From Acorus gramineus (Eukaryota; Streptophyta; Magnoliopsida; Acorales; Acoraceae): a stretch of 64,000 bases of DNA. Below the pieces are notes generated by a model, which made no database searches, had not been told where the DNA came from, and saw only the letters and a list, made by a program, of their open reading frames with translations. The translations under genes were made by a program, and so were the position numbers. Location: the NCBI GenBank assembly GCA_030737835.1, contig JAUJYN010000041.1, positions 497,083-561,082 on the forward strand, given 5' to 3'. Below are positions 825 through 29,394 of the stretch, piece after piece (the first letter of the stretch is position 1; the number at the start of each line of letters is the position of its first letter).

Positions 825-825
<1 letters not shown>

Positions 826-868: not shown

Positions 869-869
<1 letters not shown>

Positions 870-975
870 ACAAACCAACTGCGTGGGGCAGGGGACAACA
901 AGGAAGGTGAGGGATCAGGTAAGAGAAAAAAGAGGAAGAAGAAAAGGGAATAGCTAGGCGAATGCATAAACTATC

Positions 976-1292: not shown

Positions 1293-2912
1293 TCATCATT
1301 TGCATTTGAAAACTCATTCTAGATCTGTTTCTATCACATAATAACTTTTTTAATGTGATGGGTGAGTATTCATGTTGTTTGCATTGGTTATTCATTTCTG
1401 GTTTCATCTTAATTCGAGGTTGTTATAATATCTTTTGTAGGCAAAACCAAGTCAGTGAATTAGCGGATGACTACAGAAAACATCTGCATTTTGATGGTAA
1501 GTGATTTGCATCTTGAGTTATGGCTCTCTTAAATTGCCTTTTATTCTCATTGCTATTCTTTCATCTCTGCAGGGTTCAATTCATTGTTCCTTTACCGAAG
1601 ATGGTACAGGTGTTTTACCAGACTAGATGCCTTCTCTGTCGAAAACGGGAATATTGAAAGAAGAAAGGACCTCTCTGAACAGGAGTTTCAATCTGAGTAC
1701 GATGGTCAAAAACCGGTAAGGTTCTCTTTGTTTACCACTGTTATGTGAGAACTGAATTTGTGGTCTCTTATATTTGGTATTAGCGTTCTTAGAAGAGTGG
1801 GTTACATACTTACATGAGAAAGATTGTCCCTTGCTGTGTGACATATACGTGTTTCCATAGTTAAATATTTGGCCTGCCTGGTCTATACTTAACTAAATAA
1901 GAAGAAGTTCCCCCCTACAATTCATGGTGATGTAAGTGGTTTTATAGGTTGATTTAGTATTTAAACAGAAATTGATTAATATTTCTTAGTGGCCAGAATT
2001 AAGTTTTATCCTTAGTTGATCTAAGTGACACTGGAAATTTTCTTTCAAGGGGTCAAGGATGCCAACCTTGGTGGCCCAATGAAAGGAAAAAGGAAATGAT
2101 GGTAGAAATCATGTTCAAATTACCAGAGAATGGCAAAGAGCATTATTTATTGGAACCTATATTCCTTGCTTCCGTTTTTTTGTTTATGTAATATAACAGA
2201 TTTTTGCAGTACTACCTACACAGTGGCCATCATATTTGAACTTCCACCATTTTATGAAAATTATTTTCCTGGATTATTACATTGCCCCCAGATCTATATT
2301 ATATATATCCATGTAAATGATTAGCATAAATATGGACACTTATGTGGATATTCCAATACAATTTTCCTCTTCATTGGTGCTATATAGTTTCATAGTTATA
2401 CATTCGAATGTTTCTTATCCCAGGTTCTGCTTACTGACTTAGCGGAAAGTTGGCCAGCAAGAACCACTTGGACAACTGAAAAGCTCTTGAGGAATTGTGG
2501 AGATATTGCATTTAGAATATCCCAAATGAATTCAGGGAAAATTACCATGAAGTTGAAGGATTATATGTCATACATGCAACTTTAGCACGATGAGGATCCT
2601 CTTTATATATTTGATGAAAAGGTCTTTCTTATGCCCCTGGATTTTTTTTCTTCTTTTCTTTTTGTTTATAGCCGTGCAGAATTTTCTTAAGTTTGCTTTA
2701 CTCTTCTCGCAGTATGGGGAAATTGCTCCCACTCTTCTGAAGGATTACACTGTGCCTCATCTTTTTCGAGAAGACTTTTTTGATGTCTTAGATAGAGATA
2801 AGAGACCACCTTTTAGATGGCTAATCATTGGGCCAGAGTGATCAGGTGCCTCGTGGCACATAGATCCTGCCCTTACCAGTGCCTGGAATACCCTCCTTTC
2901 TGGACGGAAAAG

Positions 2913-5575
2913 GTAAATCTGAAGTTAATGTCAAGATCATTTAAAATTCCTTTACGCTACTGTACTGGTTCAGCTTTTTTTTTTAATTCTGCTCTCTGAA
3001 TTCTTGTGCAAAGTCATGTTTTTTTTTTAGTGCATAATCTTATGTACATTCAGCCATTGTCTTTGTAGGTTATTCCCTCAGAGGGCCAACCCTGATTTGT
3101 TCTACTAACTCCTAGGGATATCATCGTGATGCCTCAATGCACATGTTCAATCCACTTCTAATAAATGTCAGCTATATTATGTTGTTAAGTGGTTACTCCT
3201 GGGTTTCCTTGTATGAGTTCAGCAGTGCAACTAATTTAACTGTCTAATTCCATCACTCTTGATAATGACATTTGATCCTCACAAATTAGAAATTCTAATG
3301 AGCCCGTATGAGATGATTAAAGAAGATGACAGGTGCGCAATGCCTTCACTTCATGTAATCAAATTAATTTGATATTAACCATCCTTGTCAGATTTTTCAT
3401 AATTTTTTGAAACATCTTTTTGTGATTATTCTTTTCTTAGTGACTAATTCTGTTTAATCCCATTTGCTTAAAACTGCGTTGATATAATTATTCTGACAAA
3501 ATAATTCTTGACATTGATTCTTTTTTACATGCATAATCTTCAAAGTTTAGATTGTAAATATTTACATGGTTTCACAACTTTCTGAAAAAACCTCATATTA
3601 GTATATTACTCATCCTTTAGGAAGATTTAGAGATTTTGTTCCTAATGCATCTAATTTGGCATATATTCCAATAATGCCTGACTTTATTGAATTTGTTGAT
3701 AATATTTTTCACCCACACTTAAATCTAAGTTATCAATGAACTAATGAACACTGCATACCTGGAACTGTTAATTTCTCTTTTGATCTTTCCTTGTTTTTTT
3801 TGTTTGTCATCTAATTTAAGCTTATGATACTTATAGTAGAATTTGATCCAAGTGGGAATCATCTCTACCTGAAAGTTTCTGGTCTAGCTATCTGTGCTTC
3901 TAAAAACTACAGGTTGTTTTTGGGTAACTAAGGTTGGTTGATAGTAAAAGATACCCTGATCCTTTTTTCCCCAACTTTATTCCAAGTCTATTTTTTTTTA
4001 TAATTTTGAAAGAAAACAAAATCATATCTGAGTTTTAATTGAAAAAACCTTTTTGTCAAATTTTCCCCTTTCTGTCATGCACTTCTCTATTCGAGACACT
4101 AGGCTACTTGGTTTTTGTTCCACTTATTTTATTTAACCATTGAATATTTTTTTATCTTAAGTCGAAACATTTTGTTGATCTCAACTATGTTATTACTCAT
4201 GAGACGTGCATGTACAATCTCAACTATGTTATTATTTTTTTGCTCATGAGACGTGCATGTAAAATCAATCAGATTCATCTTCTTTGTTAAAATGGATGTT
4301 GGTATCTATGACAAACTGACAAAAACTTAAAGAAAATTCCACTGTTTTTACTTTTACTCAACAGAACATTGTCAAGAGTGTGACATTTTGGAACATTATT
4401 TGTCAAACTTTGGATATGAGTAACTTATGATAAAGTGATTACCATTAAAGAAATCTCAAAACACTACTTAAAAATTTATATTTTGTGAAGAAATTACAGT
4501 TTGAAACCTATATATTCACCAAAAAGATACTAATAATTAATTTTTTCTCCACGTGCCCTATTCAAATTTCTTTTATTGCTACAAAGATGATTTGAAAGCT
4601 TGCTTCATCTAGTTTTTTTTTTTTTTTATCTTTATTTGATCACCGAGCTGAAAATGTGGATTTGAGAACTGCGGTTGCATTTGATGAAATGCTCTAGTCA
4701 GCTGCTTTTGCCCCACACTTGGTCATTATCATTTATGCCAGTTATGTAATCTGTTTTCAGTTGTTAAAAGATGGTTACTATGTTAGTAAAAGGTTTATTG
4801 TAATAGTTTTAATGCTATTTGATCATTGAATTGAAAATGAAGTTCTTATATGAGTGCTTTTGCTAAAATTCAAACACAACTTCTCTCTCATAGTGAATAA
4901 ATGCTCAAACCATCTTTACTACATAAAGCCGCTTATATTCTTTTGCTTGTCTATAAATTTTTGTGAGTATTTCCGCTTTCCATAAGAACATCCTTTGTTT
5001 ATGAAATAAGATGGTTAATTTACATATTGGAATAACTGAGAATTCGTATTGAGATTGCTGCTTTTCCAGAAGATGTCATTTCCATGAGATAGTCAAGGAA
5101 TCTAGAAACTGATAATTTTACTTCAATTGAACTTCAGAAAAATAAGATTTATGACAGTGAATGGCAACATCAACGGAGTGTATGAATTACACGGATGACA
5201 GGTAGTCAAATAAACTATTGCCAAATCCAGTAGTAGTAACAGCTAGTGAGAAACTTCAAAATAGTCAGGGATCAGGCTAACATGCACAATAGGATCTGGA
5301 GTATCATCCAGATTTCAAAGAAACAGATATTGTGAGCCACTTTCAAACTTTTACAATTCACATTATTTGAACCTGCCACATTGTTTAGCTAAAGGAATTT
5401 ATGTTATAAAAAATAATTCCATTCAAAGTGTTGCTGATAGGATTCTTTTCTTTTTTGGCAATACTGATATGATTCTCATTTCTTTTAACTATATAATTCA
5501 TGTTCTCTGGTGTATGCTTCCCTTAATGGGAGGCTCAGCATCTGAAGGGGCTTATTAAGTGATGTTTTCTTGCAG
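2913..5575 (+). other. Long intron 6 of the left JMJ21 copy
   Basis: This 2.7-kb intron has a GTAAAT donor and a TTGCAG acceptor and is AT-rich. It holds a two-copy tandem duplication at 4180-4265. I see no gene or clear transposon inside. The right-arm mirror is about 24837-27489. Confidence 0.85.
4180..4265 (+). repeat. Two-copy 39-bp tandem duplication
   Basis: The words CTCAACTATGTTATTA and CTCATGAGACGTGCATGT each occur twice with a 39-bp offset; the second unit has a short T-rich insertion. It is also present in the right arm (about 26146-26232), so it predates the palindrome. Confidence 0.85.
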
Positions 5576-7387
5576 GTGGGCGTTATACCCCCCAGGAAGA
5601 GTGCCAGCAGGTGTCACAGTGCATGTAAACGAAGAAGATGGTGATGTCAACATAGATAGTCCCTCATCATTGCAGGTACTTTTACCTGGGTACAGATGAT
5701 TAATAAATACCTAAAAATGTATTTGTTTGTTAATATCGAATCATAAATGGACCCCTTTTTATGTTTTATTTCTTGCACTTATTTTGCTCCTACAGTGGTG
5801 GCTTGATGTATACCCACTTCTTGCTGATCATGACCCAACTACCTGGGGAGACGATTTTTGTTCCAAGTGGATGGTGGCACTGTGTGCTGAATCTGGAAAC
5901 CACCATAGCAGTTACTCAAAACTTTGTGAATGAAACAAATTTCAAGTTTGTCTGCCTGGATATGGCTCCTGGCCATCGTCATAAAGGAGTTGTTCGTGCT
6001 GGATTGCTTGCTGTGAGGGGTTGCACTCCTTCAGATGTCATGAACGATGCTTCCTTGGATACAGATCAGTTGAATTTCCCAGATATGACATGGAAAGAAA
6101 AGAGGCTTAGAACACAACTTAAAGAAGACACACAGATGGACATAAGTGGAAACAATAAAAATGAATTCTTGGAGGATCAAGATTTTTCTTATGATATAGA
6201 TTTCTTGTCAAATTTTTTGGAGCAAGATAGGGACCACTACAATTCTATTTGGTGTTCAAGCAATTGCATAGGGCAAAGAGAACTGAGACTATGGTTGCAC
6301 AAGCTTTGGGTTGTGAAGCCGGAAATGAGAAGCTTGATATGGGAGGTATAATCTGTATGGTTTTCCTGCAATTTATCTTTTATTCTGTTAGTGTGCCATC
6401 TTTCAAATAAGGACATTGAGATGGTGCAAATCACCTTTGTTGTGCATTTCTATGCATCTTAGACCTCATGTTAGATACTGCATCTGTTGCGTGCCCTGGC
6501 TCAATTTCCTAATTTTTGCATTCATATTTGAGAATATATGCACTCTCTAAATTATTCAATTATTGCTATCAGGGAGCTTGCTTAGCTCTTAATGCTAAAA
6601 GATGGTTAGAATGCGTCATGGAAATTTGCGCTTCACATAATTTGCCGTGTCCAGTGGATGATGAGAGGCTTCCTGTTGGCACAGGTAGCAATCCTGTAAG
6701 TGACCTCAATTACTGCTATTGATGTTAGTTATCTGAAAATATCAACATTACAGCAGCCAATTTCATTCTGTTGAAGCGGTAGCTTGTTGAGTAGCATGTA
6801 TTAAATGCTAAATTTCTATTATATGTTGCAATTCATACTTAATTCATGGTCTTGCCCAAATCTGATGCGTCATTGTTGATCTCATCTAGATAACTATGGA
6901 TTTTTTAAGATTTCAATGTAGTTTTGGCAGATTATGCTTTTTTCTTCGGATTGGATGTAAAAGGGGTGATAAAATCTATATGTGAATGTATAAACTATCC
7001 TTCTGAAGAAGCTTGCAAAACAAAGCTGGTATCACTGGACTAGTTATGGAGCTAGGCTTCTGATGAATCTGAGCAAGTTATCTTATTGGTTTTTCTAATT
7101 GATGTCTTGTAAAAATACTTATTAACTACATTTACCTTGTCTTTAGGCATTCTATCTTACATGGATATGTAATTAAGTAGGAACATCTATTTGGAAATGC
7201 AATAATAAATTGATATAAATATGATTCCTGACAATGTTGATAAAAAGTGTTTAGTTTTCAGGCTCTTAAAAACAACTTGATGTTTGTCTGCATTATGTCA
7301 AAACAGGTGTATCTCATTTCTGGCTATGTTATTAAGATATATGTTGAAGGGGGCTTGGAATCTTCTGTCCATAGTTTGGGCTCTGAG

Positions 7388-7752
7388 GTACCTGGTATTT
7401 CACTAGGTTTTCATTGAACTGATAATATTTAGAGACAGTTTAATTTTTCCTCTGTGAAAGTAGTTTTATTTCTTATGAATATGAAATCATGAATTCTGAC
7501 CTATAGAACAGAAATAATAAATGAAATATGTAATTAAAGGTCTTGTACTTATGGGTCTGAACCACCATCAAAAAAATAAAAGGGCCGATGCGAAGTCCAT
7601 GTTTATAAAAAATGTTGCAACATAATGATAATGTAATGATTTGTTTGTTGTGGGTATGTTCTGTTCAAAAAGTTTTCAACTACTGTATCACTAGTCTGCT
7701 ATCTGCAAAAGAGGAATCCATGTGGATTATATTCATTTACTTGATTTTGCAG
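7388..7752 (+). other. Deletion junction in left JMJ21 (exons 11-12 lost)
   Basis: Between exon 10 and exon 13 the left arm is about 1.9 kb shorter than the right. The junction is near 7420-7425; the flanking right-arm sequences (about 22989 and 21079) share only AAT there, a 3-4 bp microhomology. The lost part contained exons 11 and 12. Confidence 0.85.
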
Positions 7753-8259
7753 GGGAGATCCTATTCCGGGTAATTTGATCAATAAACTTGAAGAGTATCT
7801 TCCACATGATCTTGCAATGTTGCTAGATGTATTCAAGGTTTCTCAAAATTCTGATTTTATTATTTTCAAATACTGTCTCCACTTCTGAAACCTGTCTTGA
7901 CTTCTTACATCATTTATATACTTTACTAGAATAAAGATGGACAATATAAGTTCCATGGTTCTCCTACTTGGATACATACAGACATTATGGATGACAATAT
8001 TCACATGGAACCATGTGTCCCTAACAAGTCCCTTGGTGAAATTACTCCAGAAGCTATTGTGATGATGGTTAATGGTGCCCTAAATGGATGCAGTCAAGCG
8101 AAAAGGCCATTGAAATGGCATCCTACACATATTCTTGATTTCAGTAATCTGTCTATAGGTGAATCATCTCTCCCAACCTCTTTTTTTAGTTCTCTGTTTT
8201 TAACATATTTTTGATAATCTGTTCTTTACTCAGTGTGTAGAGCGGGGTATATTCTCATT

Positions 8260-8301
8260 CTAGGGTGGGTGACCTCCTGGGAAATCCTCGTGTTGCATCC
8301 C
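8260..8301 (+). rRNA. 5S rRNA 3'-end fragment (left arm)
   Basis: The segment matches the 3' third of plant 5S rRNA: it contains GGGTGACCTCCTGGGAA and CCTCGTGTTGCATCCC, followed by a T run like a Pol III terminator. The upstream bases (GAGCGGGGTATATTCTCATT) are only loosely 5S-like, and the 5' half is absent, so it is not a working gene. It could be a stray 5S fragment or part of a 5S-bearing Cassandra-type element fossil. It lies about 100 bp after the last recognisable JMJ21 exon. Confidence 0.85.
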
Positions 8302-8653
8302 AAATTTTTTTTTTCTTCAAAAAAAAATAAATAAATAAATTTTTTTCTTAAAGTTGAATGGCCAAAATTCCATGCTTTATTGAGATCAATTTTGAGTATT
8401 CTGATCATTTGCTTGAATTATTATAGTACATCTTATGGTCTTGATTGAAGTAATACTTTTGTTTTTTTTTAAGCTCCAAACAATACTGCTTATATCCCCA
8501 AAATGGGGTGTAATTCTGTGAATCACTAATTGGATGAATATGACCTGGCATATAAAAAATTGAGCATACAAAACACGGAGAAAAAATTATTGATAGGTTA
8601 CCATCAAAGTATGTAATTCCATTCATGCTTAAAACTAGTGATAAGTGTGAAAT

Positions 8654-8789
8654 GATAGCTTATGTATTCGCCTAGCTATTCCCTTTTCTTCTTCCTCTTT
8701 TTTTTCTTACCTGATCCCTCACCTTCCTTGTTGTCCCCTGCCCCACGCAGTTTGTTTTGGAAGATTTGAGGAAGGAAATCAGGGGGTGA

Positions 8790-8845
<56 letters not shown>

Positions 8846-9400
8846 CAAACCAGTGGTCTAGTTACAACATAAGAGCGCTAATGCATTCAGTTCGGTTTGC
8901 AGTCCGTTTTGCAGCTTCATATGCTATGATAACATGGTATATACTGCGTTATCATAGAGTATGTTGCAGTTTTTTATATTTAAAATTGACTTAGATACAT
9001 TTATATATTTTGCAAGGACACATTTATGGAAGATTTGTAGTTCAATAGGTTAGAAATTGACTCATAAATTATATTGACTAACAATAACAGTTCAAGGATA
9101 TACTTATAGTTTTGATAGAAATTTACATGGCTCTTGACGTATTTGCTAGGATTTCAATGCCCTTAGTCTTAAAAAAATGGCTACACCAACCTCATGATGC
9201 TTCAGTATTAACGCCCAAACCCAAGAGTAATGTTTTTTTTTTTTTCAATATATCTGAAAATTTCTGGTTCAACTTCTACCCCAGGCACTAAATAAGACCC
9301 AAGAAAAAGTGCCTTCATAGAAGCCCACAACTGGTGAGGACCCAGACCAGAGTTCACAACGTGAATTCGACGGTTATCTTACTGTGGCGTTTTCAGCGAT
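8654..9400 (-). repeat. Arm block, inverted relative to 1-975
   Basis: The block is the reverse complement of 1-975 and mirrors 19102-19844. Together with 1-975 it flanks the left JMJ21 copy as an inverted-repeat pair. It contains a (GT)n(GA)n microsatellite and lacks the two stretches noted in the outer copy. No coding region is visible. Confidence 0.88.
8788..8842 (+). repeat. (GT)n(GA)n microsatellite
   Basis: A run of GT dinucleotides passes directly into GA dinucleotides. Its mirror lies at 19656-19710. Confidence 0.95.
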
Positions 9401-9539
9401 AAAAGCATTGAACTGCATATTATTTCCGTTAGAAATTTGTTGACAAATTCATAAATGTCATTAATAACTCACTCAATTATTGCTAATAATCCACCTATTT
9501 AATGGATCTTGTTGAGGCAGTTGTTTTTTTATTATGATT

Positions 9540-9977
9540 CATAGTTGTCTAGATGACTAGGCGGTGGCTAACTGTTTAAGCGATACTTAATTACATTTAT
9601 ATGTCATCAAGATTATAAAAATGTGTAAAAATTAAAATGAAACAAAAAGGGAAAAATAATCATTGCAATAACTAAGAATCCATAGTTTTAAAACCATCAA
9701 CCAATGAACCAACATACAAAAACTAAATGGTTATCTTTTGTTTGTTTGTTTGTTTTTTTGAGATTTGAGGTAATTCAATCGTCACTTTTTAATAACATTT
9801 AGTTAGGGTTGGGCGAGCGCTGATGCGGGCCGGGAGGGTTTTAAGCGGGCTAGGCCCAGGTTAAATGGGCTAATGGGCCTTGGCACCCGCTCAATTCATC
9901 TTCTTGTTAGGCGTTCATGCGTTTAGGGCGTCTAGCCTGCCTACCCGCCTAGGCGAGCCGTCGCCTGAACAACTATG
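9540..9977. mobile_element. hAT-type MITE, left-arm copy
   Basis: The ends are inverted: CATAGTTGTCTAG at the left and CAACTATG at the right, with CGCCTAGGCG-type motifs inside each end. Flanking 8-bp target duplications are TTATGATT (9532-9539) and TTATGGTT (9978-9985), one mismatch. An 8-bp duplication and CA..TG ends fit hAT. It is 438 bp long and noncoding. The same insertion is in the right arm, so it predates the palindrome. Confidence 0.8.
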
Positions 9978-9985
9978 TTATGGTT

Positions 9986-12423
9986 GTAATAATGGGTTCC
10001 TTGTTTTAAGCTTTTATAGTTTAGGAATTCCTAATGTTGCGGGGCTCTCTTTCTCCTATAGAAGAACCATGTAAAGGAAGAAGATATAAAGCTTATAATG
10101 CATGAAAATTAGGGTTTTTCCTTTTCTTGTTGTTCTCCATTGCGTTTTGATTATCATTAAACATGTCTCATTATCTCTGAAAAACATTAAAACCATTTTT
10201 TTTGTTGCGGTTTAAGTTGGATACATGGAATATTAACGGTGGATGAAAAGTAGATAAGAAATAACAATTCTAACCTACTTGCGGTAGAGTGCCTTCCACT
10301 TAAAAATAAAATAAAAATCTAACCCAATATTAGTTGTGCTTGACAACATTGTCAAGTATCTCTGTGAGAGATGTGACATGTTTTAGGATGCAAGTGTTAT
10401 AAAAATCTTCTAAAATGACATCAAAGTTTGTTTTGGCCCTGTGTGTTAAGAGAGATATCAGGACTTGACAAAATAGAAAGGAATCTAGATTCACAACTAG
10501 TGAAATAAACAGATCATAGATGCAATGATAAATATATATTATATAACACCAAATCAGTTTAACAAAAAAATCCTCTCTAGTCACAACAGGTGACTGTATA
10601 AAGCCACAACATATTCAAGCAGCGTAAACAAGAATAAGTTGCACTAAACGTAGATTATAAGCTCTTACATTGGATAGGTTAATGCCTAGTCATCAACCTC
10701 CTGATATTGTGCAAAGCAACTGGGCACATTCGGGCAACACCGTGTCGCTCTGGGCAACACGGACTCACAGTACTCATCAGTCCTCCACGACCTGAATTTT
10801 GCACAAGCGGGTGTTCCCTGTCACGCCATCAACCGTGTTAAGTCACGTCTCCGGTGACGGCATTCCACTCTGACCTTCGCTCCTGCAAAGCACATCAGGC
10901 AATTGTTGCTCAGTCTAGTAATACATGAGTGAGACGTTTAAATTAGCACTATCAATTGTTGGATCTATATGGATCTTAAAAACTCAATAGTCGAGCAGGG
11001 AATTCTTCATTCAACGGAGCGAAGGGACCCTGTTTAGGGGTTCTGGGAAAAAAAAAGGGGTGTTTTTTTGTGTAGTAGCAGTAACACCTGTGAAGGTCGA
11101 AGACTCCAAACCTGTGTGAGCTGCTCAAAAATTAATGAGAAGAGAAACAAAGCAGCAAAAAAAAAAAAAAGGCAGAGACCCCTAAACATAATTGAATCAC
11201 TCAACAAAAAAAAAATCCAAAGAACAGTTCAGATTATGTGATGTTGTAAAGGCGGCTTTCGTGCGAATTAAATATAAATATCTGTAGATAAGTAAAACAA
11301 CAAAGATTGGATGGAAAATAACATAGCTAACCACGAGTTGAAAATTGCAGCACAGCCAAAAAAATCTGAAAATTCTCAATGTGAAAAATCAGAGAGAAAG
11401 GGCTTATCTTTGACGATGGTGTTGGGTGATTTTGGGAAGTGAAGTGGACCCTGTTTTAGTGTTTTTAAAAGGTCCACCCTGTGACATGAGGGGAAAACAC
11501 AAACTAAATGACAAAATTGTCCCTATTAAGGTGAACTTACCATGATGCCCTTGAGGACAAATTTGTCCGTATCATCTCACTTTTATAGATGTATTATAAA
11601 TATAAATGGAGGGCACATGCATTGTATGATAATGTTCAATCATAGTTGAAGAAGAATGGCACATGCATGTCCTTAAATCTGGTTCAATTGATTTGATCAA
11701 TTATTAGCATAAAGTTAAAATCTAACTGAATTGACAAAAGTTTTGAGAAACCAGCGGTTCTTTTTTTTTTTTCCGTTATTGGTGGATGCACACTGAAGGC
11801 AGACAACATAATGCAACTCAACTTGCTCCTGCAAGATTACCTGGGGCGTTGAGAAATCCAGATACATATATCGAGTGTTCTGGAACTGAATAGTGCGCGC
11901 CATAGGTGAGCAAATGTCTTCATATGGGGTCGCACATAACATTCCTTCAATATAAAATGAACTCCTTTTAAAAGCACTTACATTTGTAGATATAATATGC
12001 ATGAAACACACTTCTGATCCAATTGTTTGATAAAAGGAAGAGAAATTAAAAAAGAGAGCAAGTTTTATCTCATCAAAATAGCGTCAGCCATGGAGGACTA
12101 CTAAAAGAAATTGAAGAGGCCAGAACAAGATTGATGTGGTTTAACAACCAGCCATCTACAGTAAACTATATGGGTAGAGCAAATTCCTCCAGGATGCTAC
12201 ATAATTCATGTGTTTTAAAGGAACATTGGTTTTTAAGCTGTTGCTGTATTTATGATCATTTGGAAGCAATTAATTTTCCTCAAAAACTGTCAACAAATGT
12301 GGCTTTTTTTAATGTACTATTACTTGTCAACTCTTTTTTTGAGAAACGGTAGACCATAGCTACCCCAATTTTGGAGCAACAGCACTAGAACAAAATGTAG
12401 ATGGAAATGCTAATTTACATTAC
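9986..12423. other. Noncoding part of left arm between MITE and PPR region
   Basis: I recognise no gene here. There is an unclassified GC-richer block at about 10690-10880, an (A)n/T-rich patch near 11155-11220 and a conserved-looking segment at 11390-11560. All of it is mirrored at about 16083-18520. Reading frames on both strands are short and look random. Confidence 0.6.
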
Positions 12424-12486
12424 CTGTTGCTACCACACATAATCTGGAAGCTTCAGCTACACTTTGCCGACAATCAGCATATGCCT
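12424..12486 (-). other. Exon-like 63-bp segment, left arm (unidentified)
   Basis: On the minus strand this 63-bp block sits between a CTGGCAG acceptor-like and a CAG/GTAATG donor-like site and has an open frame reading AYADCRQSVAEASRLCVVAT. It is mirrored at 16020-16082. I do not recognise the family. It could be an exon of a neighbouring gene fragment or a chance frame. Confidence 0.35.
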
Positions 12487-12987
12487 CTGCCAGAAAGAAA
12501 AGAAGTTGTCAACAATTTAAATCTTCATCTGAAGAATGATTTCTTAAAATATAACAGAACCAGTTACATGATTAACTTCAATAAATTGCATACCTCCAAT
12601 ATTGTCTCGACCCAATACCACTTTCAGTAGCTATAGTTTGAGGTAAACTCAATCATTTGCATCGGTTCCTATCATGCTTTTCAAATAACTTTGTCCAGAA
12701 AATCAGAATTCTATTTAGGCATGGAAGTTTCTTTAAGGAAGATTGTAGCATTCATTTTAAAAATGACGCTCCTGTTGCTCTCCAATTAAAAAATGACACC
12801 CCCACCCACAAACAAGATTGGAGCATTCACGATGGAAGATTGAAGAATCCATATTCTTGATGCCCTTTCAATAAACCATCCTCTTTATTCACATCTAATG
12901 ATAGAGAATCTGAAGAGTTTGTCAACTGAATCGCTTTTGAAGTGAGTCCTTCCATCCACAGTATGGAAATGAAATAACTATTGAAAC

Positions 12988-14174: not shown

Positions 14175-14217
14175 TTGATATGGGAGGTATAATCTGTATG
14201 GTTTTCTTGCAATTTAT
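14175..14217 (+). repeat. 43-nt JMJ21-derived insert at the apex, left side
   Basis: These bases match JMJ21 exon 8 end plus intron start (6334-6376 in the left copy; 24036-24078 in the right) with one mismatch. The block contains GATATGGGAGGTATAATCTG and TGCAATTTAT. It is fused directly to PPR sequence, so both apex junctions are chimeric. The PPR frame runs through it on the minus strand only by chance. Confidence 0.93.
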
Positions 14218-14218
14218 G

Positions 14219-14287
14219 GAATATGTTCGTGGACCACGCAGGATTTGGTGCACTTCTACTACTGCCAGTCAGAGATCGGGTAACTTG
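14219..14287. other. Palindrome spacer (loop)
   Basis: This is 69 bp of unpaired sequence between the arms, of unknown origin. At its right edge (14280-14292) lies GTAACTTGCATAA, a 13-bp word also found in the PPR coding sequence (14472-14484 and mirror), a possible microhomology used in forming the junction. Confidence 0.85.
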
Positions 14288-14288
14288 C

Positions 14289-14331
14289 ATAAATTGCAAG
14301 AAAACCATACAGATTATACCTCCCATATCAA
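14289..14331 (-). repeat. 43-nt JMJ21-derived insert at the apex, right side
   Basis: Mirror of 14175-14217, with the same single difference from JMJ21. It is fused to the right PPR fragment. Confidence 0.93.
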
Positions 14332-16019: not shown

Positions 16020-16082
16020 AGGCATATGCTGATTGTCGGCAAAGTGTAGCTGAAGCTTCCAGATTATGTGTGGTAGCAACAG
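16020..16082 (+). other. Exon-like 63-bp segment, right arm (unidentified)
   Basis: Mirror of 12424-12486: an open 63-bp stretch between GGCAG and GTAATG, about 500 bp beyond the PPR frame. The family is not recognised. Confidence 0.35.
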
Positions 16083-18525: not shown

Positions 18526-18963
18526 CATAGTTGTTCAGGCGACGGCTCGCCTAGGCGGGTAGGCAGGCTAGACGCCCTAAACGCATGAACGCCTAACAAG
18601 AAGATGAATTGAGCGGGTGCCAAGGCCCATTAGCCCATTTAACCTGGGCCTAGCCCGCTTAAAACCCTCCCGGCCCGCATCAGCGCTCGCCCAACCCTAA
18701 CTAAATGTTATTAAAAAGTGACGACTGAATTACCTCAAATCTCAAAAAAACAAACAAACAAACAAAAGATAACCATTTAGTTTTTGTATGTTGGTTCATT
18801 GGTTGATGGTTTTAAAACTATGGATTCTTAGTTATTGCAATGATTATTTTTCCCTTTTTGTTTCATTTTAATTTTTACACATTTTTATAATCTTGATGAC
18901 ATATAAATGTAATTAAGTATCGCTTAAACAGTTAGCCACCGCCTAGTCATCTAGACAACTATG
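18526..18963. mobile_element. hAT-type MITE, right-arm copy
   Basis: Mirror of 9540-9977, with the same CATAGTTGT ends and imperfect 8-bp duplications. Confidence 0.8.
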
Positions 18964-19101
18964 AATCATAATAAAAAAAAACTGCCTCAACAAGATCCAT
19001 TAAATAGGTGGATTATTAGCAATAATTGAGTGAGTTATTAATGACATTTATGAATTTGTCAACAAATTTCTAACGGAAATAATATGCAGTTCAATGCTTT
19101 T

Positions 19102-19656
19102 ATCGCTGAAAACGCCACAGTAAGATAACCGTCGAATTCACGTTGTGAACTCTGGTCTGGGTCCTCACCAGTTGTGGGCTTCTATGAAGGCACTTTTTCT
19201 TGGGTCTTATTTAGTGCCTGGGGTAGAAGTTGAACCAGAAATTTTCAGATATATTGAAAAAAAAAAAAACATTACTCTTGGGTTTGGGCGTTAATACTGA
19301 AGCATCATGACGTTGGTGTAGCCATTTTTTTAAGACTAAGGGCATTGAAATCCTAGCAAATACGTCAAGAGCCATGTAAATTTCTATCAAAACTATAAGT
19401 ATATCCTTGAACTGTTATTGTTAGTCAATATAATTTATGAGTCAATTTCTAACCTATTGAACTACAAATCTTCCATAAATGTGTCCTTGCAAAATATATA
19501 AATGTATCTAAGTCAATTTTAAATATAAAAAACTGCAACATACTCTATGATAACGCAGTATATACCATGTTATCATAGTATATGAAGCTGCAAAACGGAC
19601 TGCAAACCGAACTGAATGCATTAGCGCTCTTATGTTGTAACTAGACCACTGGGTTG

Positions 19657-19708
<52 letters not shown>

Positions 19709-19844
19709 TCACCCCCTGATTTCCTTCCTCAAATCTTCCAAAACAAACTGCGTGGGGCAGGGGACAACAAGGAAGGTGAGGGATCAGGTAAGAAAAAAAA
19801 GAGGAAGAAGAAAAGGGAATAGCTAGGCGAATACATAAGCTATC
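19102..19844 (+). repeat. Arm block, direct copy of 1-975
   Basis: Mirror of 8654-9400. It shares with that copy the absence of the two stretches found only at 1-975, so these two are sisters and the copy at the window start is older or separate. It includes a (CT)n(CA)n run at 19656-19710. Confidence 0.88.
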
Positions 19845-20196
19845 ATTTCACACTTATCACTAGTTTTAAGCATGAATGGAATTACATACTTTGATGGTAA
19901 CCTATCAATAATTTTTTCTCCGTGTTTTGTATGCTCAATTTTTTATATGCCAGGTCATATTCATCCAATTAGTGATTCACAGAATTACACCCCATTTTGG
20001 GGATATAAGTAGTATTGTTTGGAGCTTAAAAAAAAACAAAAGTATTACTTCAATCAAGACCATAAGATGTACTATAATAATTCAAGCAAATGATCAGAAT
20101 ACTCAAAATTGATCTCAATAAAGCATGGAATTTTGGCCATTCAACTTTAAGAAAAAAATTTATTTTTTTTTTTTTTTTTGAAGAAAAAAAAAATTT

Positions 20197-20238
20197 GGGA
20201 TGCAACACGAGGATTTCCCAGGAGGTCACCCACCCTAG
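20197..20238 (-). rRNA. 5S rRNA 3'-end fragment (right arm)
   Basis: Mirror of 8260-8301; the same 42-nt 3' third of 5S rRNA with a following T run on the minus strand. It is a fragment, not a gene. Confidence 0.85.
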
Positions 20239-20745
20239 AATGAGAATATACCCCGCTCTACACACTGAGTAAAGAACAGATTATCAAAAATATGTTAAAA
20301 ACAGAGAACTAAAAAAAGAGGTTGGGAGAGATGATTCACCTATAGACAGATTACTGAAATCAAGAATATGTGTAGGATGCCATTTCAATGGCCTTTTCGC
20401 TTGACTGCATCCATTTAGGGCACCATTAACCATCATCACAATAGCTTCTGGAGTAATTTCACCAAGGGACTTGTTAGGGACACATGGTTCCATGTGAATA
20501 TTGTCATCCATAATGTCTGTATGTATCCAAGTAGGAGAACCATGGAACTTATATTGTCCATCTTTATTCTAGTAAAGTATATAAATGATGTAAGAAGTCA
20601 AGACAGGTTTCAGAAGTGGAGACAGTATTTGAAAAAAATAAAATCAGAATTTTGAGAAACCTTGAATACATCTAGCAACATTGCAAGATCATGTGGAACA
20701 TACTCTTCAAGTTTATTGATCAAATTACCCGGAATAGGATCTCCC

Positions 20746-22238
20746 CTGCAAAATCAAGTAAATGAATATAATCCACATGGATTCCTCTTTTGCAGATAGC
20801 AGACTAGTGATACAGTAGTTGAAAACTTTTTGAACAGAACATACCCACAACAAACAAATCATTACATTATCATTATGTTGCAACATTTTTTATAAACATG
20901 GACTTCGCATCGGCCCTTTTATTTTTTTGATGGTGGTTCAGACCCATAAGTACGAGACCTTTAATTACATATTTCATTTATTATTTCTGTTCTATAGGTC
21001 AGAATTCATGATTTCATATTCATAAGAAATAAAACTACTTTCACAGAGGAAAAATTAAACTGTCTCTAAATATTGTGTTATGCTAAAAAAAAAAATCATC
21101 ATATTTCTCGCCTTTCTTCAAATTCACAATTAATGAACTAGCTTCAACATCCAGGTCCCTCACTGCATTTTTTTTAGATAAAAAATTGGTGGCGATGAGA
21201 GAAGGGTAATGAATTCTGCATTGGACATATAGGAATATGCTAAAGATTATCGTAGATCCCACTGAAAAAATGTTCCTTCTTAATCCGCATTTAGATTATT
21301 TTGAAAGCTTGGAGAGCAAAGAATGGCTCCTTATTGCATGAGCATAAGCTAAAGAACTATTTAGGTTTCCCACATGCAAACCGGCCATCACCAAGACATG
21401 GCAAGCCCATCCCTGGCTATAATTAACTGGCCTCTCAAGATTATGCATGATCCTTTACCCTACTCCAAATACATGGGGCAAGGCCTGTTGATTATAATAA
21501 TGGTTTTGGTGATCGGCGTAGTAAAAAAAATGACTACAGCAGCGACACAAACCTTGAGAACAAATCTTCCAAAGTAGACGTGGTTCCAGAGCTTAGACAA
21601 TAGGAACGACATCCCAATTTTTTTATTTTTTTTTAATATTTCAACTGTCAGCATAGATTCCATGAGATCAATATTTTTGTCTTTGAACAGATCGTTAGTT
21701 TTTACTTCCTGCATATGATGCATAAAACATTTACTAACTGCAAAAATTCAATGAGGCAATGAGCATTGATCAGATGCTTGTTAAAGAAGAATATAATTCT
21801 TCCAACTCTATAGTGGTGAACTTTTTGACCCCCATTTCCCCTTCATTTTAAATATACTCTGAAACATCAGCAGAATAACAAAAACAAGACCAGTATCTGA
21901 ATCTTAGTTAAATTGCACCTTTCTCGTGAAATTGCTTAACTACAAAATGTGTGTTGTCCTTTAAATCAGAAGGTCCTTAAAATGATAGACTCTTTCAATT
22001 AGTTTCTCTAAGGTTTCCCAAATATTCATTATCTTATACTAACTAAAAGCGAATAATTTCAGCATACCTTTCCATTTTAGATATTAGTATGATATACACA
22101 GCATAAGTCATAAACAGATAATAATATTTTATAACAGAAACAGTAATCGCATCCATGAAGCTTATTGTACAAACCCACCAGAATCAGAAACATGAGGAAA
22201 AAAAAATTAAAAGCCAAGGCATAAGTATTAAAAAGTAC
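20746..22238 (-). other. Intron 12 of right JMJ21; contains one deletion endpoint
   Basis: This is a 1.5-kb intron between exons 12 and 13. From 21079 onward (toward exon 12) it has no counterpart in the left arm. I see no recognisable gene. Confidence 0.75.
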
Positions 22239-25200
22239 CATTTAGCCAAACGGCTCAAAAGATCCCTCTTTCTTCTATTCATGCTTGCAATAAAAAGGGG
22301 CCATTCAAATGGTACAGTAAGGCATTCAGGAACTGCCATAATAGAAGCATTTGCATGAGGTAGACCTTCATCCTGGCCATTTAATCTTCTGTTTTGATGT
22401 ACCTTTCCTTCGTCATCTGGTGATATGAGACTTTGCATAGGTGGCAGGGGCAAGAGGTGAAGATTGCGCACTTTGTCTCCCAAAAATGAAGCTAAATTTA
22501 GAATATCTTCCTTCGGTAATTCATCTCTTCTGCAAAACAGAGATTTGCATGTTATAAAGTATATATTGGGCATGCCAAAGTTGTGCGCACTTCATACATG
22601 ACCATATAAAAAAAATGCTGACATAGCAAGTGGTGAACTTACAAATTTGCAAATATATCGCCTTTGCATCTCTTTGTAATTAAGTATGGCCAGATCCCTG
22701 TGCATGCAGAAATTCCCACTTCTCTTAACTCAAACTGCTGTTTGCTCCACACACCAAAATGGAAACCATCTATTGCAAGATTTTCATTAACCCAATCAAA
22801 TTTTGAAATCTCATGTGGAACACCTTTTCCATCCCATGGGACAGTTCTAATAAAACTATTTTCATGGACCACAAAACCACTAGCCATAACACCAGGAATG
22901 TTATCAATCAGTGGGGAGCTCTTCTCCTTAAGCAATGTGTAGAATTCAAGCTGCAAGCACACAGAGAGAAAATATGACATTTGAAATTATCAGTTCAATG
23001 AAAACCTAGTGAAATACCAGGTACCTCAGAGCCCAAACTATGGACAGAAGATTCCAAGCCCCCTTCAACATATATCTTAATAACATAGCCAGAAATGAGA
23101 TACACCTGTTTTGACATAATGCAGACAAACATCAAGTTGTTTTTAAGAGCCTGCAAACTAAACACTTTTTATCAACATTGTCAGGAATCATATTTATATC
23201 AATTTATTATTGCATTTCCAAATAGATGTTCCTACTTAATTACATATCCATGTAAGATAGAATGCCTAAAGACAAGGTAAATGTAGCTAATAAGTATTTT
23301 TACAAGACATCAATTAGAAAAACCAATAAGATAACTTGCTCAGATTCATCAGAAGCCTAGCTCCATAACTAGTCCAGTGATACCAGCTTTGTTTTGCAAG
23401 CTTCTTCAGAAGGATAGTTTATACATTCACATATAGATTTTATCACCCCTTTTACATCCAATCCGAAGAAAAAAGCATAATCTGCCAAAACTACATTGAA
23501 ATCTTAAAAAATCCATAGTTATCTAGATGAGATCAACAATGACGCATCAGATTTGGGCAAGACCATGAATTAAGTATGAATTGCAACATATAATAGAAAT
23601 TTAGCATTTAATACATGCTACTCAACAAGCTACCGCTTCAACAGAATGAAATTGGCTGCTGTAATGTTGATATTTTCAGATAACTAACATCAATAGCAGT
23701 AATTGAGGTCACTTACAGGATTGCTACCTGTGCCAACAGGAAGCCTCTCATCATCCACTGGACACGGCAAATTATGTGAAGCGCAAATTTCCATGACGCA
23801 TTCTAACCATCTTTTAGCATTAAGAGCTAAGCAAGCCCCCTGATAACAATAATTGAATAATTTAGAGAGTGCATATATTCTCAAATATGAATGCAAAAAT
23901 TAGGCAATTGAGCCAGGGCATGCAACAGATGCAGTATCTAACATGAGGTCTAAGATGCATAGAAATGCACAACAAAGGTGATTTGCACCATCTCAATGTC
24001 CTTATTTGAAAGATGGCACACTAACAGAATAAAAGATAAATTGCAGGAAAACCATACAGATTATACCTCCCATATCAAGCTTCTCATTTCCGGCTTCACA
24101 ACCCAAAGCTTGTGCAACCATAGTCTCAGTTCTCTTTGCCCTATGCAATTGCTTGAACACCAAATAGAATTGTAGTGGTCCCTATCTTGCTCCAAAAAAT
24201 TTGACAAGAAATCTATATCATAAGAAAAATCTTGATCCTCCAAGAATTCATTTTTATTGTTTCCACTTATGTCCATCTGTGTGTCTTCTTTAAGTTGTGT
24301 TCTAAGCCTCTTTTCTTTCCGTGTCATATCTGGGAAATTCAACTGATCTGTATCCAAGGAAGCATCGTTCATGACATCTGAAGGAGTGCAACCCCTCACA
24401 GCAAGCAATCCAGCACGAACAACTCCTTTATGACGATGGCCAGGAGCCATATCCAGGCAGACAAACTTGAAATTTGTTTCATTCACAAAGTTTTGAGTAA
24501 CTGCTATGGTGGTTTCCAGATTCAGCACACAGTGCCACCATCCACTTGGAACAAAAATCGTCTCCCCAGGTAGTTGGGTCATGATCAGCAAGAAGTGGGT
24601 ATACATCAAGCCACCACTGTAGGAGCAAAATAAGTGCAAGAAATAAAACATAAAAAGGGGTCCATTTATGATTCGATATTAACAAACAAATACATTTTTA
24701 GGTATTTATTAATCATCTGTACCCAGGTAAAAGTACCTGCAATGATGAGGGACTATCTATGTTGACATCACCATCTTCTTCGTTTACATGCACTGTGACA
24801 CCTGCTGGCACTCTTCCTGGGGGGTATAACGCCCACCTGCAAGAAAACATCACTTAATAAGCCCCTTTAGATGCTGAGCCTCCCATTAAGGGAAGCATAC
24901 ACCAGAGAACATGAATTATATAGTTAAAAGAAATGAGAATCATATCAGTATTGCCAAAAAAGAAAAGAATCCTATCAGCAACACTTTGAATGGAATTATT
25001 TTTTATAACATAAATTCCTTTAGCTAAACAATGTGGCAGGTTCAAATAATGTGAATTGTAAAAGTTTGAAAGTGGCTCACAATATCTGTTTCTTTGAAAT
25101 CTGGATGATACTCCAGATCCTATTGCGCATGTTAGCCTGATCCCTGACTATTTTGAAGTTTCTCACTAGCTGTTACTACTACTGGATTTGGCAATAGTTT

Positions 25201-28200
25201 ATTTGACTACCTGTCATCCGTGTAATTCATACACTCCGTTGATGTTGCCATTCACTGTCATAAATCTTATTTTTCTGAAGTTCAATTGAAGTAAAATTAT
25301 CAGTTTCTAGATTCCTTGACTATCTCATGGAAATGACATCTTCTGGAAAAGCAGCAATCTCAATACGAATTCTCAGTTATTCCAATATGTAAATTAACCA
25401 TCTTATTTCATAAACAAAGGATGTTCTTATGGAAAGCGGAAATACTCACAAAAATTTATAGACAAGCAAAAGAATATAAGCGGCTTTATGTAGTAAAGAT
25501 GGTTTGAGCATTTATTCACTATGAGAGAGAAGTTGTGTTTGAATTTTAGCAAAAGCACTCCTATAAGAACTTCATTTTCAATTCAATGATCAAATAGCAT
25601 TAAAACTATTACAATAAACCTTTTACTAACATAGTAACCATCTTTTAACAACTGAAAACAGATTACATAACTGGCATAAATGATAATGACCAAGTGTGGG
25701 GCAAAAGCAGCTGACTAGAGCATTTCATCAAATGCAACCGCAGTTCTCAAATCCACATTTTCAGCTCGGTGATCAAATAAAGAAAAAAAAAAAAAACTAG
25801 ATGAAGCAAGCTTTCAAATCATCTTTGTAGCAATAAAAGAAATTTGAATAGGACACGTGGAGAAAAAATTAATTATTAGTATCTTTTTGGTGAATATATA
25901 GGTTTCAAACTGTAATTTCTTCACAAAATATAAATTTTTAAGTAGTGTTTTGAGATTTCTTTAATGGTAATCACTTTATCATAAGTTACTCATATCCAAA
26001 GTTTGACAAATAATGTTCCAAAATGTCACTCTTGACAATGTTCTGTTGAGTAAAAGTAAAAACAGTGGAATTTTCTTAAGTTTTTGTCAGTTTGTCATAG
26101 ATACCAACATCCATTTTAACAAAGAAGATGAATCTGATTGATTTTACATGCACGTCTCATGAGTAAAAAAATAATAACATAGTTGAGATTGTACATGCAC
26201 GTCTCATGAGTAATAACATAGTTGAGATCAACAAAATGTTTCGACTTAAGATAAAAAAATATTCAATGGTTAAATAAAATAAGTGGAACAAAAACCAAGT
26301 AGCCTAGTGTCTCGAATAGAGAACTGCATGACAGAAAGGGGAAAATTTGACAAAAAGGTTTTTTCAATCAAAACTCAGATATGATTTTTTTTCTTTCAAA
26401 ATTATAAAAAAAAATAGACTTGGAATAAAGTTGGGGAAAAAAGGATCAGGGTATCTTTTACTATCAACCAACCTTAGTTACCCAAAAACAACCTGTAGTT
26501 TTTAGAAGCACAGATAGCTAGACCAGAAACTTTCAGGTAGAGATGATTCCCACTTGGATCAAATTCTACTATAAGTATCATAAGCTTAAATTAGATGACA
26601 AACAAAAAAAACAAGGAAAGATCAAAAGAGAAATTAACAGTTCCAGGTATGCAGTGTTCATTAGTTCATTGATAACTTAGATTTAAGTGTGGGTGAAAAA
26701 TATTATCAACAAATTCAATAAAGTCCGGCATTATTGGAATATATGCCAAATTAGATGCATTAGGAACAAAATCTCTAAATCTTCCTAAAGGATGAGTAAT
26801 ATACTAATATGAGGTTTTTTCAGAAAGTTGTGAAACCATGTAAATATTTACAATCTAAACTTTGAAGATTATGCATGTAAAAAAGAATCAATGTCAAGAA
26901 TTATTTTGTCAGAATAATTATATCAACGCAGTTTTAAGCAAATGGGATTAAACAGAATTAGTCACTAAGAAAAGAATAATCACAAAAAGATGTTTCAAAA
27001 AATTATGAAAAATCTGACAAGGATGGTTAATATCAAATTAATTTGATTACATGAAGTGAAGGCATTGCGCACCTGTCATCTTCTTTAATCATCTCATACG
27101 GGCTCATTAGAATTTCTAATTTGTGAGGATCAAATGTCATTATCAAGAGTGATGGAATTAGACAGTTAAATTAGTTGCACTGCTGAACTCATACAAGGAA
27201 ACCCAGGAGTAACCACTTAACAACATAATATAGCTGACATTTATTAGAAGATTGAACATGTGCATTGAGGCATCACGATGATATCCCTAGGAGTTAGTAG
27301 AACAAATCAGGGTTGGCCCTCTGAGGGAATAACCTACAAAGACAATGGCTGAATGTACATAAGATTATGCACTAAAAAAAAAACATGACTTTGCACAAGA
27401 ATTCAGAGAGCAGAATTAAAAAAAAAAGCTGAACCAGTACAGTAGCGTAAAGGAATTTTAAATGATCTTGACATTAACTTCAGATTTACCTTTTCCGTCC
27501 AGAAAGGAGGGTATTCCAGGCACTGGTAAGGGCAGGATCTATGTGCCATGAGGCACCTGATCGCTCTGGCCCAATGATTAGCCATCTAAAAGGTGGTCTC
27601 TTATCTCTATCTAAGACATCAAAAAAGTCTTCTCGAAAAAGATGAGGCACAGTGTAATCCTTCAGAAGAGTGGGAGCAATTTCCCCATACTGCGAGAAGA
27701 GTAAAGCAAACTTAAGAAAATTCTGCACGGCTATAAACAAAAAGAAAAGAAGAAAAAAAATCCAGGAGCATAAGAAAGACCTTTTCATCAAATATATAAA
27801 GAGGATCCTCATCGTGCTGAAGTTGCATGTATGACATATAATCCTTCAACTTCATGGTAATTTTCCCTGAATTCATTTGGGATATTCTAAATGCAATATC
27901 TCCACAATTCATCAAGAGCTTTTCAGTTGTCCAAGTGGTTCTTGCTGGCCAACTTTCCGCTAAGTCAGTAAGCAGAACCTGGGATAAGAAACATTCGAAT
28001 GTATAACTATGAAACTATAGAGCACCAATGAAGAGGAAAATTGTATTGGAATATCCACATAAGTGTCCATATTTATGCTAATCATTTACATGGATATATA
28101 TAATATAGATCTGGGGGCAATGTAATAATCCAGGAAAATAATTTCTCATAAAATGGTGGAAGTTCAAATATGATGGCCACTGTGTAGGTATTACTGCAAA

Positions 28201-29394
28201 AATCTGTTATATTACATAAACAAAAAAACGGAAGCAAGGAATATAGGTTCCAATAAATAATGCTCTTTGCCATTCTCTGGTAATTTGAACATGATTTCTA
28301 CCATCATTTCCTTTTTCCTTTCATTGGGCCACCAAGGTTGGCATCCTTGACCCCTTGAAAGAAAATTTCCAGTGTCACTTAGATCAACTAAGGATAAAAC
28401 TTAATTCTGGCCACTAAGAAATATTAATCAATTTCTGTTTAAATACTAAATCAACCTATAAAACCACTTACATCACCATGAATTGTAGGGGGGAACTTCT
28501 TCTTATTTAGTTAAGTATATAGACCAGGCAGGCCAAATATTTAACTATGGAAACACGTATATATCACACAGCAAGGGACAATCTTTCTCATGTAAGTATG
28601 TAACCCACTCTTCTAAGAACGCTAATACCAAATATAAGAAACCACAAATTCAGTTCTCACATAACAGTGGTAAACAAAGAGAACCTTACCGGTTTTTGAC
28701 CATCGTACTCAGATTGAAACTCCTGTTCAGAGAGGTCCTTTCTTCTTTCAATATTCCCGTTGTCGACAGAGAAGGCATCTAGTCTGGTAAAACACCTGTA
28801 CCATCTTCGGTAAAGGAACAATGAATTGAACCCTGCAGAGATGAAAGAATAGCAATGAGAATAAAAGGCAATTTAAGAGAACCATAACTCAAGATGCAAA
28901 TCACTTACCATCAAAATGCAGATGTTTTCTGTAGTCATCCGCTAATTCACTGACTTGGTTTTGCCTACAAAAGATATTATAACAACCTCGAATTAAGATG
29001 AAACCAGAAATGAATAACCAATGCAAACAACATGAATACTCACCCATCACATTAAAAAAGTTATTATGTGCTAGAAACAGATCTAGAATGAGTTTTCAAA
29101 TGCAAATGATGAAGTAGTTCAATTTTCATATAAATAAGGGACGTTTAGACATACCTATACAGTGTGGTCCTTTTCCAAGATCCCTTATACTCAATCAGAC
29201 CCCTTTCTCGAAGGCAAAGTCTCATCCACAAAGGTTCTTCATTGCACAATATGTACATAACGCTGCAAATGTGAAGTGAAAGCAAAGTTTAAAATGGGAG
29301 AGTTGTCATGTCATGCCATTAGACACTTTAATGAGGCAAGGCATACACCTTTATTTCATTAAATATTTATTTGATTATAAAATAGAAGAAAAAA

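What the first reader, a model, noticed from the sequence alone, without database searches (positions are those of the whole stretch)
1293..29121. Near-perfect 13-15 kb-arm palindrome of host gene fragments: a candidate hairpin siRNA locus
Two long arms with only a 69-bp loop carry inverted JMJ21 and PPR fragments. Seen: arms match through exons, introns, MITEs and microsatellites with few differences. Known: inverted gene duplications in plants can make hairpin RNA cut by DCLs (IR71-type loci), are proposed ancestors of MIR genes, and PPR genes are frequent small-RNA targets. Inferred: read-through of the apex would give kilobases of dsRNA able to silence intact JMJ21 or PPR relatives elsewhere.
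Basis: partly seen in the sequence, partly recalled or inferred. Interest (0 to 1): 0.85.

Follow-up and report, generated by a model that had tools for sequence, protein, structure and literature searches.

The report
Palindrome of dead plant gene fragments
A stretch of plant chromosome appears copied back to back into a 13-kilobase near-perfect mirror image of broken gene pieces, probably made when a broken DNA end folded back on itself; it could make self-pairing RNA if transcribed through its middle, which the sequence alone cannot show.

Summary
The palindrome is in the sequence. Two arms (left 1291-14221, right 14285-29114) pair over 12,912 columns with 55 substitutions (0.43%) and 12 small indels, around a 69-nt loop. 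The left arm lacks a 1.9-kb block (right 21075-22985) that holds JMJ21-like exons, with 3-nt junction microhomology.

The genes are dead, apparently before the palindrome formed. The PPR fragment has no 5' end and shares a stop; the JMJ21-like copy shares a JmjC frameshift, and its last exon(s) were not found. Each arm also has private nonsense changes. Both sides of the loop carry a 43-bp copy (42/43) of a JMJ21 exon-intron border: a templated insertion, the mark of fold-back/template-switch repair. An older third copy (5.3% diverged) lies at 1-975.

The hairpin-siRNA reading is possible: the only JMJ21 5' end found lies outside the arms and points at the apex, and its native 3' end seems gone. 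But it is about 19 kb away, and no small-RNA, transcript or genome data were available. A mis-join of two haplotypes is unlikely, not excluded.

The parts
1291..14221 (-). Left (inverted) arm
   Evidence: blastn/MAFFT against right arm, 0.43% substitutions
14285..29114 (+). Right arm; the JMJ21-like pseudogene continues past its outer end
14219..14287 (.). Apex loop, 69 nt unpaired; no match in the window except a 13-mer that spans its right edge
14175..14217 (+). Templated insertion, left side of apex: 42/43 copy of JMJ21 exon-intron border 6334-6376
   Evidence: blastn-short E 6e-17
14289..14331 (-). Templated insertion, right side of apex: 42/43 copy of JMJ21 exon-intron border 24036-24078
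   Evidence: blastn-short E 6e-17
24036..24078 (-). Right-arm source of the templated insertion (JMJ21-like exon end and start of intron)
6334..6376 (+). Left-arm counterpart of that source
14332..15518 (+). PPR gene fragment in right arm: 5' end missing at apex; stop at 14670 (right arm only) and shared TAA at 15309
   Evidence: Pfam PPR_2 E 3e-65 for 14673-15308; codons
12988..14174 (-). PPR gene fragment in left arm; frame open over 13198-14268; shares the TAA at 13195-13197
   Evidence: Pfam PPR_2 E 1.3e-83 for 13198-14268
20335..33767 (-). JMJ21-like pseudogene, right copy: exon 1 frameshift near 33655, JmjC frameshift near 24578, last exon(s) not found
   Evidence: Pfam JmjC E 2.5e-8 for 24064-24678; other exons by tblastn with a recalled template
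1572..8163 (+). JMJ21-like pseudogene, left copy: no exons 1-2, 1.9-kb internal deletion, nonsense changes at 2583 and 2839
   Evidence: Pfam JmjC E 2.3e-8 for 5734-6348
21075..22985 (-). 1,911-bp block present only in right arm; holds JMJ21-like exons, so read as deleted from left arm
   Evidence: ATT microhomology at left 7424-7426; exons
14592..14736 (+). Cluster of 7 substitutions, each with C or G in the left arm and T or A in the right
   Evidence: reached in 0 of 20,000 shuffles of the 24 such sites
1..975 (+). Copy C: older third copy of right-arm 19102-19842, direct orientation; reaches the window's left edge
   Evidence: 38 of 711 columns differ from right arm, 39 of 711 from left; alignment
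976..1290 (.). A+T-rich stretch between copy C and left arm, no repeat partner in the window
   Evidence: best other match 18 nt, within itself

Best explanation
A real, fairly young fold-back inverted duplication of an already decayed gene mosaic (5'-truncated PPR fragment, an unidentified gene end, 3'-truncated JMJ21-like pseudogene). Inferred course: a broken or stalled end in the PPR fragment was extended by copying 43 bp from the JMJ21 exon-intron border about 10 kb away plus a short stretch of unknown origin, folded back on itself through a 69-nt loop, and primed synthesis of an inverted copy out to the intron after exon 2 of the JMJ21 copy, where it was joined to the flank beside the older copy C. 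Later the left arm lost 1.9 kb and both arms gathered mutations. Shown: arms, loop, templated copy, deletion, disablements, third copy. Inferred: order of events and repair pathway. Most likely present role: a neutral pseudogene palindrome, at most a conditional source of dsRNA and siRNA through read-through from the right-hand JMJ21 5' end.
For: Arms with 0.43% divergence along their length. 43-bp templated insertion at 42/43 identity on both sides of the loop. 69-nt loop: in yeast with MRE11 and SAE2 intact, fold-back hairpins have loops of median 36 nt and up to thousands (PMC7467729, section 10); human fold-back junctions show a spacer with short inverted homology at its edge, and the authors suggest template insertions at complex ones (PMC3907307, passages). 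Microhomology at the deletion. Disablements shared by both arms suggest decay before duplication: PPR TAA, JmjC frameshift, JMJ21 end not found. Private nonsense in each arm (2 left, 1 right) shows decay after. Transitions fall at CG/CHG sites more than expected (17 of 34 against 21.8% of cytosines, p 0.0003), as germline mutation in methylated plant DNA does.
Against: No long reads seen; a join of two haplotypes would show similar divergence and spectrum. Base-calling errors at methylated cytosines could imitate part of the transition excess. Shared disablements could also have spread by conversion between arms. The origin of the 69-nt loop is unknown, and the sequenced human fold-back spacers in PMC3907307 are far longer (766-70,466 bp). 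JMJ21 exon calls outside the JmjC part rest on a template recalled from memory. The right-arm cluster of 7 differences is not explained by this account.
Confidence: 0.72

Rival explanations
1. An active hairpin-RNA locus: transcription from the right-hand JMJ21 5' end runs left through the pseudogene, meets no native terminator (last exon and 3' end lost), crosses the apex and yields a long hairpin cut by DCL2/3/4 into siRNAs that silence JMJ21 or PPR relatives or methylate the locus. It does not exclude the best explanation.
For: One JMJ21 5' end, outside the arms, aimed at arm - 69-nt loop - arm. The last ~100 residues of the recalled JMJ21 template gave no match above 24 bits in the window. 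In Arabidopsis Cvi-0 a deletion that enables read-through between inverted VIM genes is proposed as the causal change for siRNA production (PMC13213937, passages). 11,449 perfectly paired 24-mers. Transition excess at CG/CHG fits a methylated locus.
Against: No RNA data. About 19 kb from JMJ21 exon 1 to the apex, with a first intron of over 4 kb; promoter activity untested. PPR 5' end absent. The CHG excess alone is not significant (9 of 34, p 0.07). The mutation cluster lies in one arm only, whereas siRNA-guided methylation should touch both.
Confidence: 0.28
2. Assembly artefact: two haplotypes of one single-copy locus joined head to head.
For: 0.43% divergence plus a 1.9-kb indel looks like heterozygosity; the transition contexts fit any germline variation.
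Against: The arms end at 1291/29114 in dissimilar flanks, so a second mis-join or structural difference would be needed. The loop with its two copies of a JMJ21-derived 43-mer looks like a rearrangement junction, not a simple chimeric-read turn. No N in the window. Artificial palindromes from amplification are known (PMC6218980, search listing), but I would expect those to be nearly identical (inference).
Confidence: 0.13
3. A palindrome of the sex-chromosome kind, kept alike by arm-to-arm gene conversion, with copy C as its 'pre-arm'.
For: Willow W palindromes have ~20-kb arms over 99% alike on average, arm-specific indels, and a 12-kb 'pre-arm' similar to part of the arms just outside (PMC7023750, passages); copy C is placed likewise.
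Against: Gene content here is dead; no unusually long identical stretch stands out (longest distance between substitutions 1,254 columns, 55 substitutions in 12,912; judged by eye); copy C differs from both arms alike, which plain age explains. Genomic position unknown.
Confidence: 0.07

Closest known systems
Soybean I (CHS) locus inverted repeat (PMC3804491, passages)
   Same: Two 10.91-kb inverted clusters of host genes, perfect repeats; nearest in scale
   Different: CHS siRNAs and their targets are reported there; 5.87 kb between clusters against 69 nt; CHS family genes against dead PPR/JMJ21 fragments
Arabidopsis VIM4-VIM2 (Cvi-0) and PAI4-PAI1 inverted repeats (PMC13213937, passages)
   Same: Inverted host gene copies; for VIM4-VIM2 a structural change that permits read-through is proposed as the switch
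   Different: siRNAs and methylation measured there; none here; here the arms are pseudogenic
Arabidopsis IR71 (PMC12825306 and PMC4687873, passages)
   Same: Endogenous inverted repeat able to form long dsRNA
   Different: IR71 is about 3 kb of dsRNA with DCL2/3/4-dependent siRNAs; this stem would be about 12.9 kb and is untested
Willow W-chromosome palindromes (PMC7023750, passages)
   Same: Arms of similar size and identity, an arm-specific deletion, a partial further copy just outside the arms
   Different: There genes with reported expression, gene conversion, a spacer of 2.6 kb (text) or 3.6 kb (table), sex-linked; here dead genes, 69-nt loop, position unknown
Fold-back inverted duplications of human and yeast (PMC3907307 passages; PMC7467729 abstract and section 10)
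   Same: Inverted copy, short loop or spacer, junction features of template-switch repair
   Different: The human cases adjoin terminal deletions, translocations or rings; this one is interstitial and rejoined to a flank
SULF (Antirrhinum) and YUP (Mimulus) small-RNA loci (PMC12371187, passages)
   Different: Small RNAs, targets and phenotypes known there; untested here

Membership tests
Fold-back (template-switch) inverted duplication | Inverted copy separated from the original by a short unpaired spacer | tested here: met
   69-nt loop 14219-14287
Fold-back (template-switch) inverted duplication | Junction microhomology or templated insertion | tested here: met
   43-bp templated copy, 42/43, both sides of loop
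Fold-back (template-switch) inverted duplication | Spacer is contiguous with one arm in the ancestral chromosome | not testable with these tools
   No ancestral or related plant sequence held
Endogenous inverted-repeat siRNA locus (IR71 / soybean I type) | Near-perfect inverted arms | tested here: met
   12,912 columns, 0.43% substitutions
Endogenous inverted-repeat siRNA locus (IR71 / soybean I type) | Transcript crosses the apex | not testable with these tools
   No RNA data
Endogenous inverted-repeat siRNA locus (IR71 / soybean I type) | DCL-dependent 21-24-nt siRNAs from the arms | not testable with these tools
   No small-RNA data
Known MIR gene | Precursor matching a described family | tested here: not met
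   0 Rfam matches at gathering thresholds in the 64,000 bases; a new MIR gene would not be seen this way
Gene-conversion-maintained (sex-chromosome) palindrome | Arms homogenised: differences fewer or more clumped than age predicts | tested here: inconclusive
   Longest distance between substitutions 1,254 of 12,912 columns; no outgroup to date the arms

The most novel reading that the evidence does not exclude
The locus is a natural hpRNA gene assembled by decay: the JMJ21 copy kept its 5' end but lost its terminator, so its transcript runs through a palindromic apex and gives a ~12.9-kb dsRNA stem, longer than the soybean clusters (10.91 kb) and IR71 (about 3 kb), silencing a chromatin-modifier gene (JMJ21) and a PPR gene in trans. 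The 43-bp self-templated insertion at the apex would record the repair event that made it.
Probability: 0.2. Interest if true: 0.65.

Novelty: new member of a known kind. Interest (0 to 1): 0.42.

Why it matters
Inverted duplications of plant genes are a proposed source of siRNA and miRNA loci, but one with a readable birth scar is useful. This one keeps its apex junction, including a self-templated insertion, and carries shared and private disablements that help to order the events. It would test two questions: whether a long palindrome of dead genes is silenced or expressed by default, and whether loss of a terminator between promoter and apex is enough to switch on siRNA production, as is proposed for read-through at VIM4-VIM2.

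Tried and rejected
Own-genome search for intact JMJ21 and PPR relatives and for the sequence left of copy C: the genome search 'own' was unanswered in 10 of 10 tries, so every statement about copies elsewhere stays open.

Transposon insertion in the right arm (3-nt target-site duplication): rejected, because the 1.9-kb block contains JMJ21-like exons in order. Known structured RNA: 0 Rfam matches. tRNA: 0, with the tool's bacterial setting. Identity of the third gene end (window 23-166): 0 Pfam matches to E 5 and 0 PDB matches to E 10. Origin of the loop: nothing beyond a 13-mer also found in the PPR fragment (E 0.2). Gene-conversion tracts: none evident by eye. Pfam gave no F-box hit and no hit for the JMJ21 stretches tested outside the JmjC core, apart from a sub-threshold JmjC match (E 0.21) for 27489-27845. 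MITE and Pack-type transposon readings of the arms were not tested.

Strand-coordinated deamination for the 7-site cluster: C and G sites are mixed on one strand, so not supported.

Rows dropped or set aside: three 'shared stop' rows at 24579-24614 came from my reading that short exon (12 codons) in the wrong frame; it holds no substitution, so the changed-codon counts stand (16 changed: 7 missense, 6 silent, 3 nonsense, among 562 JMJ codons, those 12 included, and 396 PPR codons). The shared TAG at 15516 is taken as the end of the frame. The exon near 28900-28960 was not included. In one search a 3-nt 'insertion' at 22986 is the ATT overlap of my segment ends and is not among the 12 small indels (recounted). 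In one search I printed only matches above 24 bits.
Full report
OBSERVATION. Self-comparison of the window gives one dominant inverted repeat: 7424-14221 against 21074-14285 and 1291-7426 against 29114-22986. Aligned base by base it has 12,912 columns, 55 substitutions (34 transitions, 21 transversions) and 12 small indels, spread over the length, with 9 substitutions in the first 1,000 columns and 1 to 7 in each later 1,000. The unpaired loop is 69 nt (14219-14287). The only large difference is a 1,911-bp block, right 21075-22985, absent from the left arm; the junction shows a 3-nt ATT overlap. Because the block carries JMJ21-like exons in order with their neighbours, I read it as a left-arm deletion.

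WHAT IS IN THE ARMS. Right arm from the apex outward: a PPR fragment on + (Pfam PPR_2, E 3e-65 for 14673-15308; left-arm 13198-14268 E 1.3e-83), a short unidentified open stretch at 19124-19291, and a JMJ21-like gene on - from 20335 outward, whose 5' exons continue past the arm's end to an ATG at 33767. The JmjC core is supported by Pfam (E 2.5e-8 right, 2.3e-8 left). The other exons were placed by tblastn with an Arabidopsis JMJ21 sequence recalled from memory, so the gene name is a recalled label with partial support.

THE GENES ARE DEAD, APPARENTLY BEFORE THE PALINDROME. Shared by both arms: an in-frame TAA in the PPR fragment (right 15309), loss of the PPR 5' end at 14332, a frameshift in the JmjC region near 24578 (left 5834), and no match above 24 bits to the last ~100 residues of the recalled JMJ21 anywhere in the 64 kb, although a 29-residue exon was found. 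Outside the arm, exon 1 is out of frame with exon 2, by what looks like 4 extra bases near 33655 against the recalled protein. Private: nonsense changes at left 2583 and 2839 and right 14670. Of 16 changed codons, 7 are missense, 6 silent and 3 nonsense. The right-hand JMJ21 copy therefore is not an intact parent. Conversion between arms could also spread a disablement, so the order is an inference.

THE BIRTH SCAR. On both sides of the loop lies a 43-bp copy, 42 of 43 identical, of the JMJ21 exon-intron border at 24036-24078 (left 6334-6376). It sits between the PPR fragment and the loop, exactly at the turn. Templated insertions and a short loop are marks of fold-back or template-switch repair: human fold-back junctions have a spacer and short inverted homology, with template insertions suggested for complex ones (PMC3907307, passages), and yeast fold-backs formed with MRE11/SAE2 intact have loops of median 36 nt (PMC7467729, section 10). 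The human spacers are much longer (766-70,466 bp). That the insertion is in both arms suggests it was added before the inverted copy was made.

A THIRD COPY. Window 1-975 is a direct copy of right-arm 19102-19842, differing from the right arm at 38 and from the left at 39 of 711 columns, while the arms differ at 3. It has two stretches that the arms lack and lacks one of about 28 bp that they have, and it reaches the window's left edge. At the three arm differences it assigns one change to the right arm and two to the left. Willow W palindromes have a comparable 'pre-arm' (PMC7023750, passages).

MUTATION PATTERN. Of 34 transitions, 24 have T/A in the right arm and 10 in the left (p 0.024; 17 to 10, p 0.25, without the cluster). 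Seven of the 24 lie in 145 bp (14592-14736), reached in 0 of 20,000 shuffles; for all 55 substitutions the same maximum is reached in 30 of 20,000. CG and CHG sites hold 17 of 34 against 21.8% of cytosines (p 0.0003); CG alone 8 of 34 (p 0.001), CHG alone 9 of 34 (p 0.07). This looks like methylcytosine decay in a real genome, though base-calling errors at methylated sites could imitate part of it. It does not separate paralogues from alleles, and the one-armed cluster is unexplained.

REAL OR ARTEFACT. Against a mis-join: outer ends in dissimilar flanks, a rearranged apex, arm-specific deletion and nonsense changes, no N. For it: divergence in the range of heterozygosity. I give an artefact about 13%. 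Long reads decide.

HOW IT COULD WORK. The apex lacks the PPR 5' end. The only JMJ21 5' end found is in the right flank and points at the apex; its native 3' end seems lost, so no native terminator stands before the turn (inference). Cvi-0 VIM4-VIM2 is reported as a case where read-through across an inverted gene pair gives siRNAs that act in cis and trans (PMC13213937, passages), and the soybean I locus makes CHS siRNAs from 10.91-kb inverted clusters (PMC3804491, passages). The arms offer 11,449 perfectly paired 24-mers. But the distance is about 19 kb and nothing measured here shows transcription. I put an active siRNA locus near 0.28.

VERDICT. A confirmed palindrome, best read as a young fold-back duplication of pseudogenes: a new member of a known kind, with an unusually legible junction. 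The siRNA reading is a fair, untested proposal.

Noticed in passing
47775-48774 and 59897-60920: A second inverted pair, about 1 kb, 96.5% identical, with a 77% relative at 41403-41801; probably copies of one repeat element.
   Followed up: no
45307-45716 and 46185-46598: Inverted pair, 74% identical, with A-rich and T-rich ends; perhaps two copies of one short element.
   Followed up: no
36196-36900: Perfect TA microsatellite (29 units) beside TC and CGACCCCCGT-like arrays; G+C rises to 48% in 36001-37000.
   Followed up: no
14592-14736: Seven C:G-to-T:A differences in 145 bp, the right arm being the T/A one, mixed strands and contexts; polarised as right-arm changes by the stop at 14670 and, less surely, by the recalled PPR consensus; cause unknown.
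   Followed up: partly
23-166: Open 48-residue gene end shared with the arms; no Pfam or PDB match.
   Followed up: partly
29400-33600: Intron 1 of the JMJ21-like copy is over 4 kb, with ORFs that by eye recall plant LINE remnants; Pfam found nothing in the two tested.
   Followed up: partly
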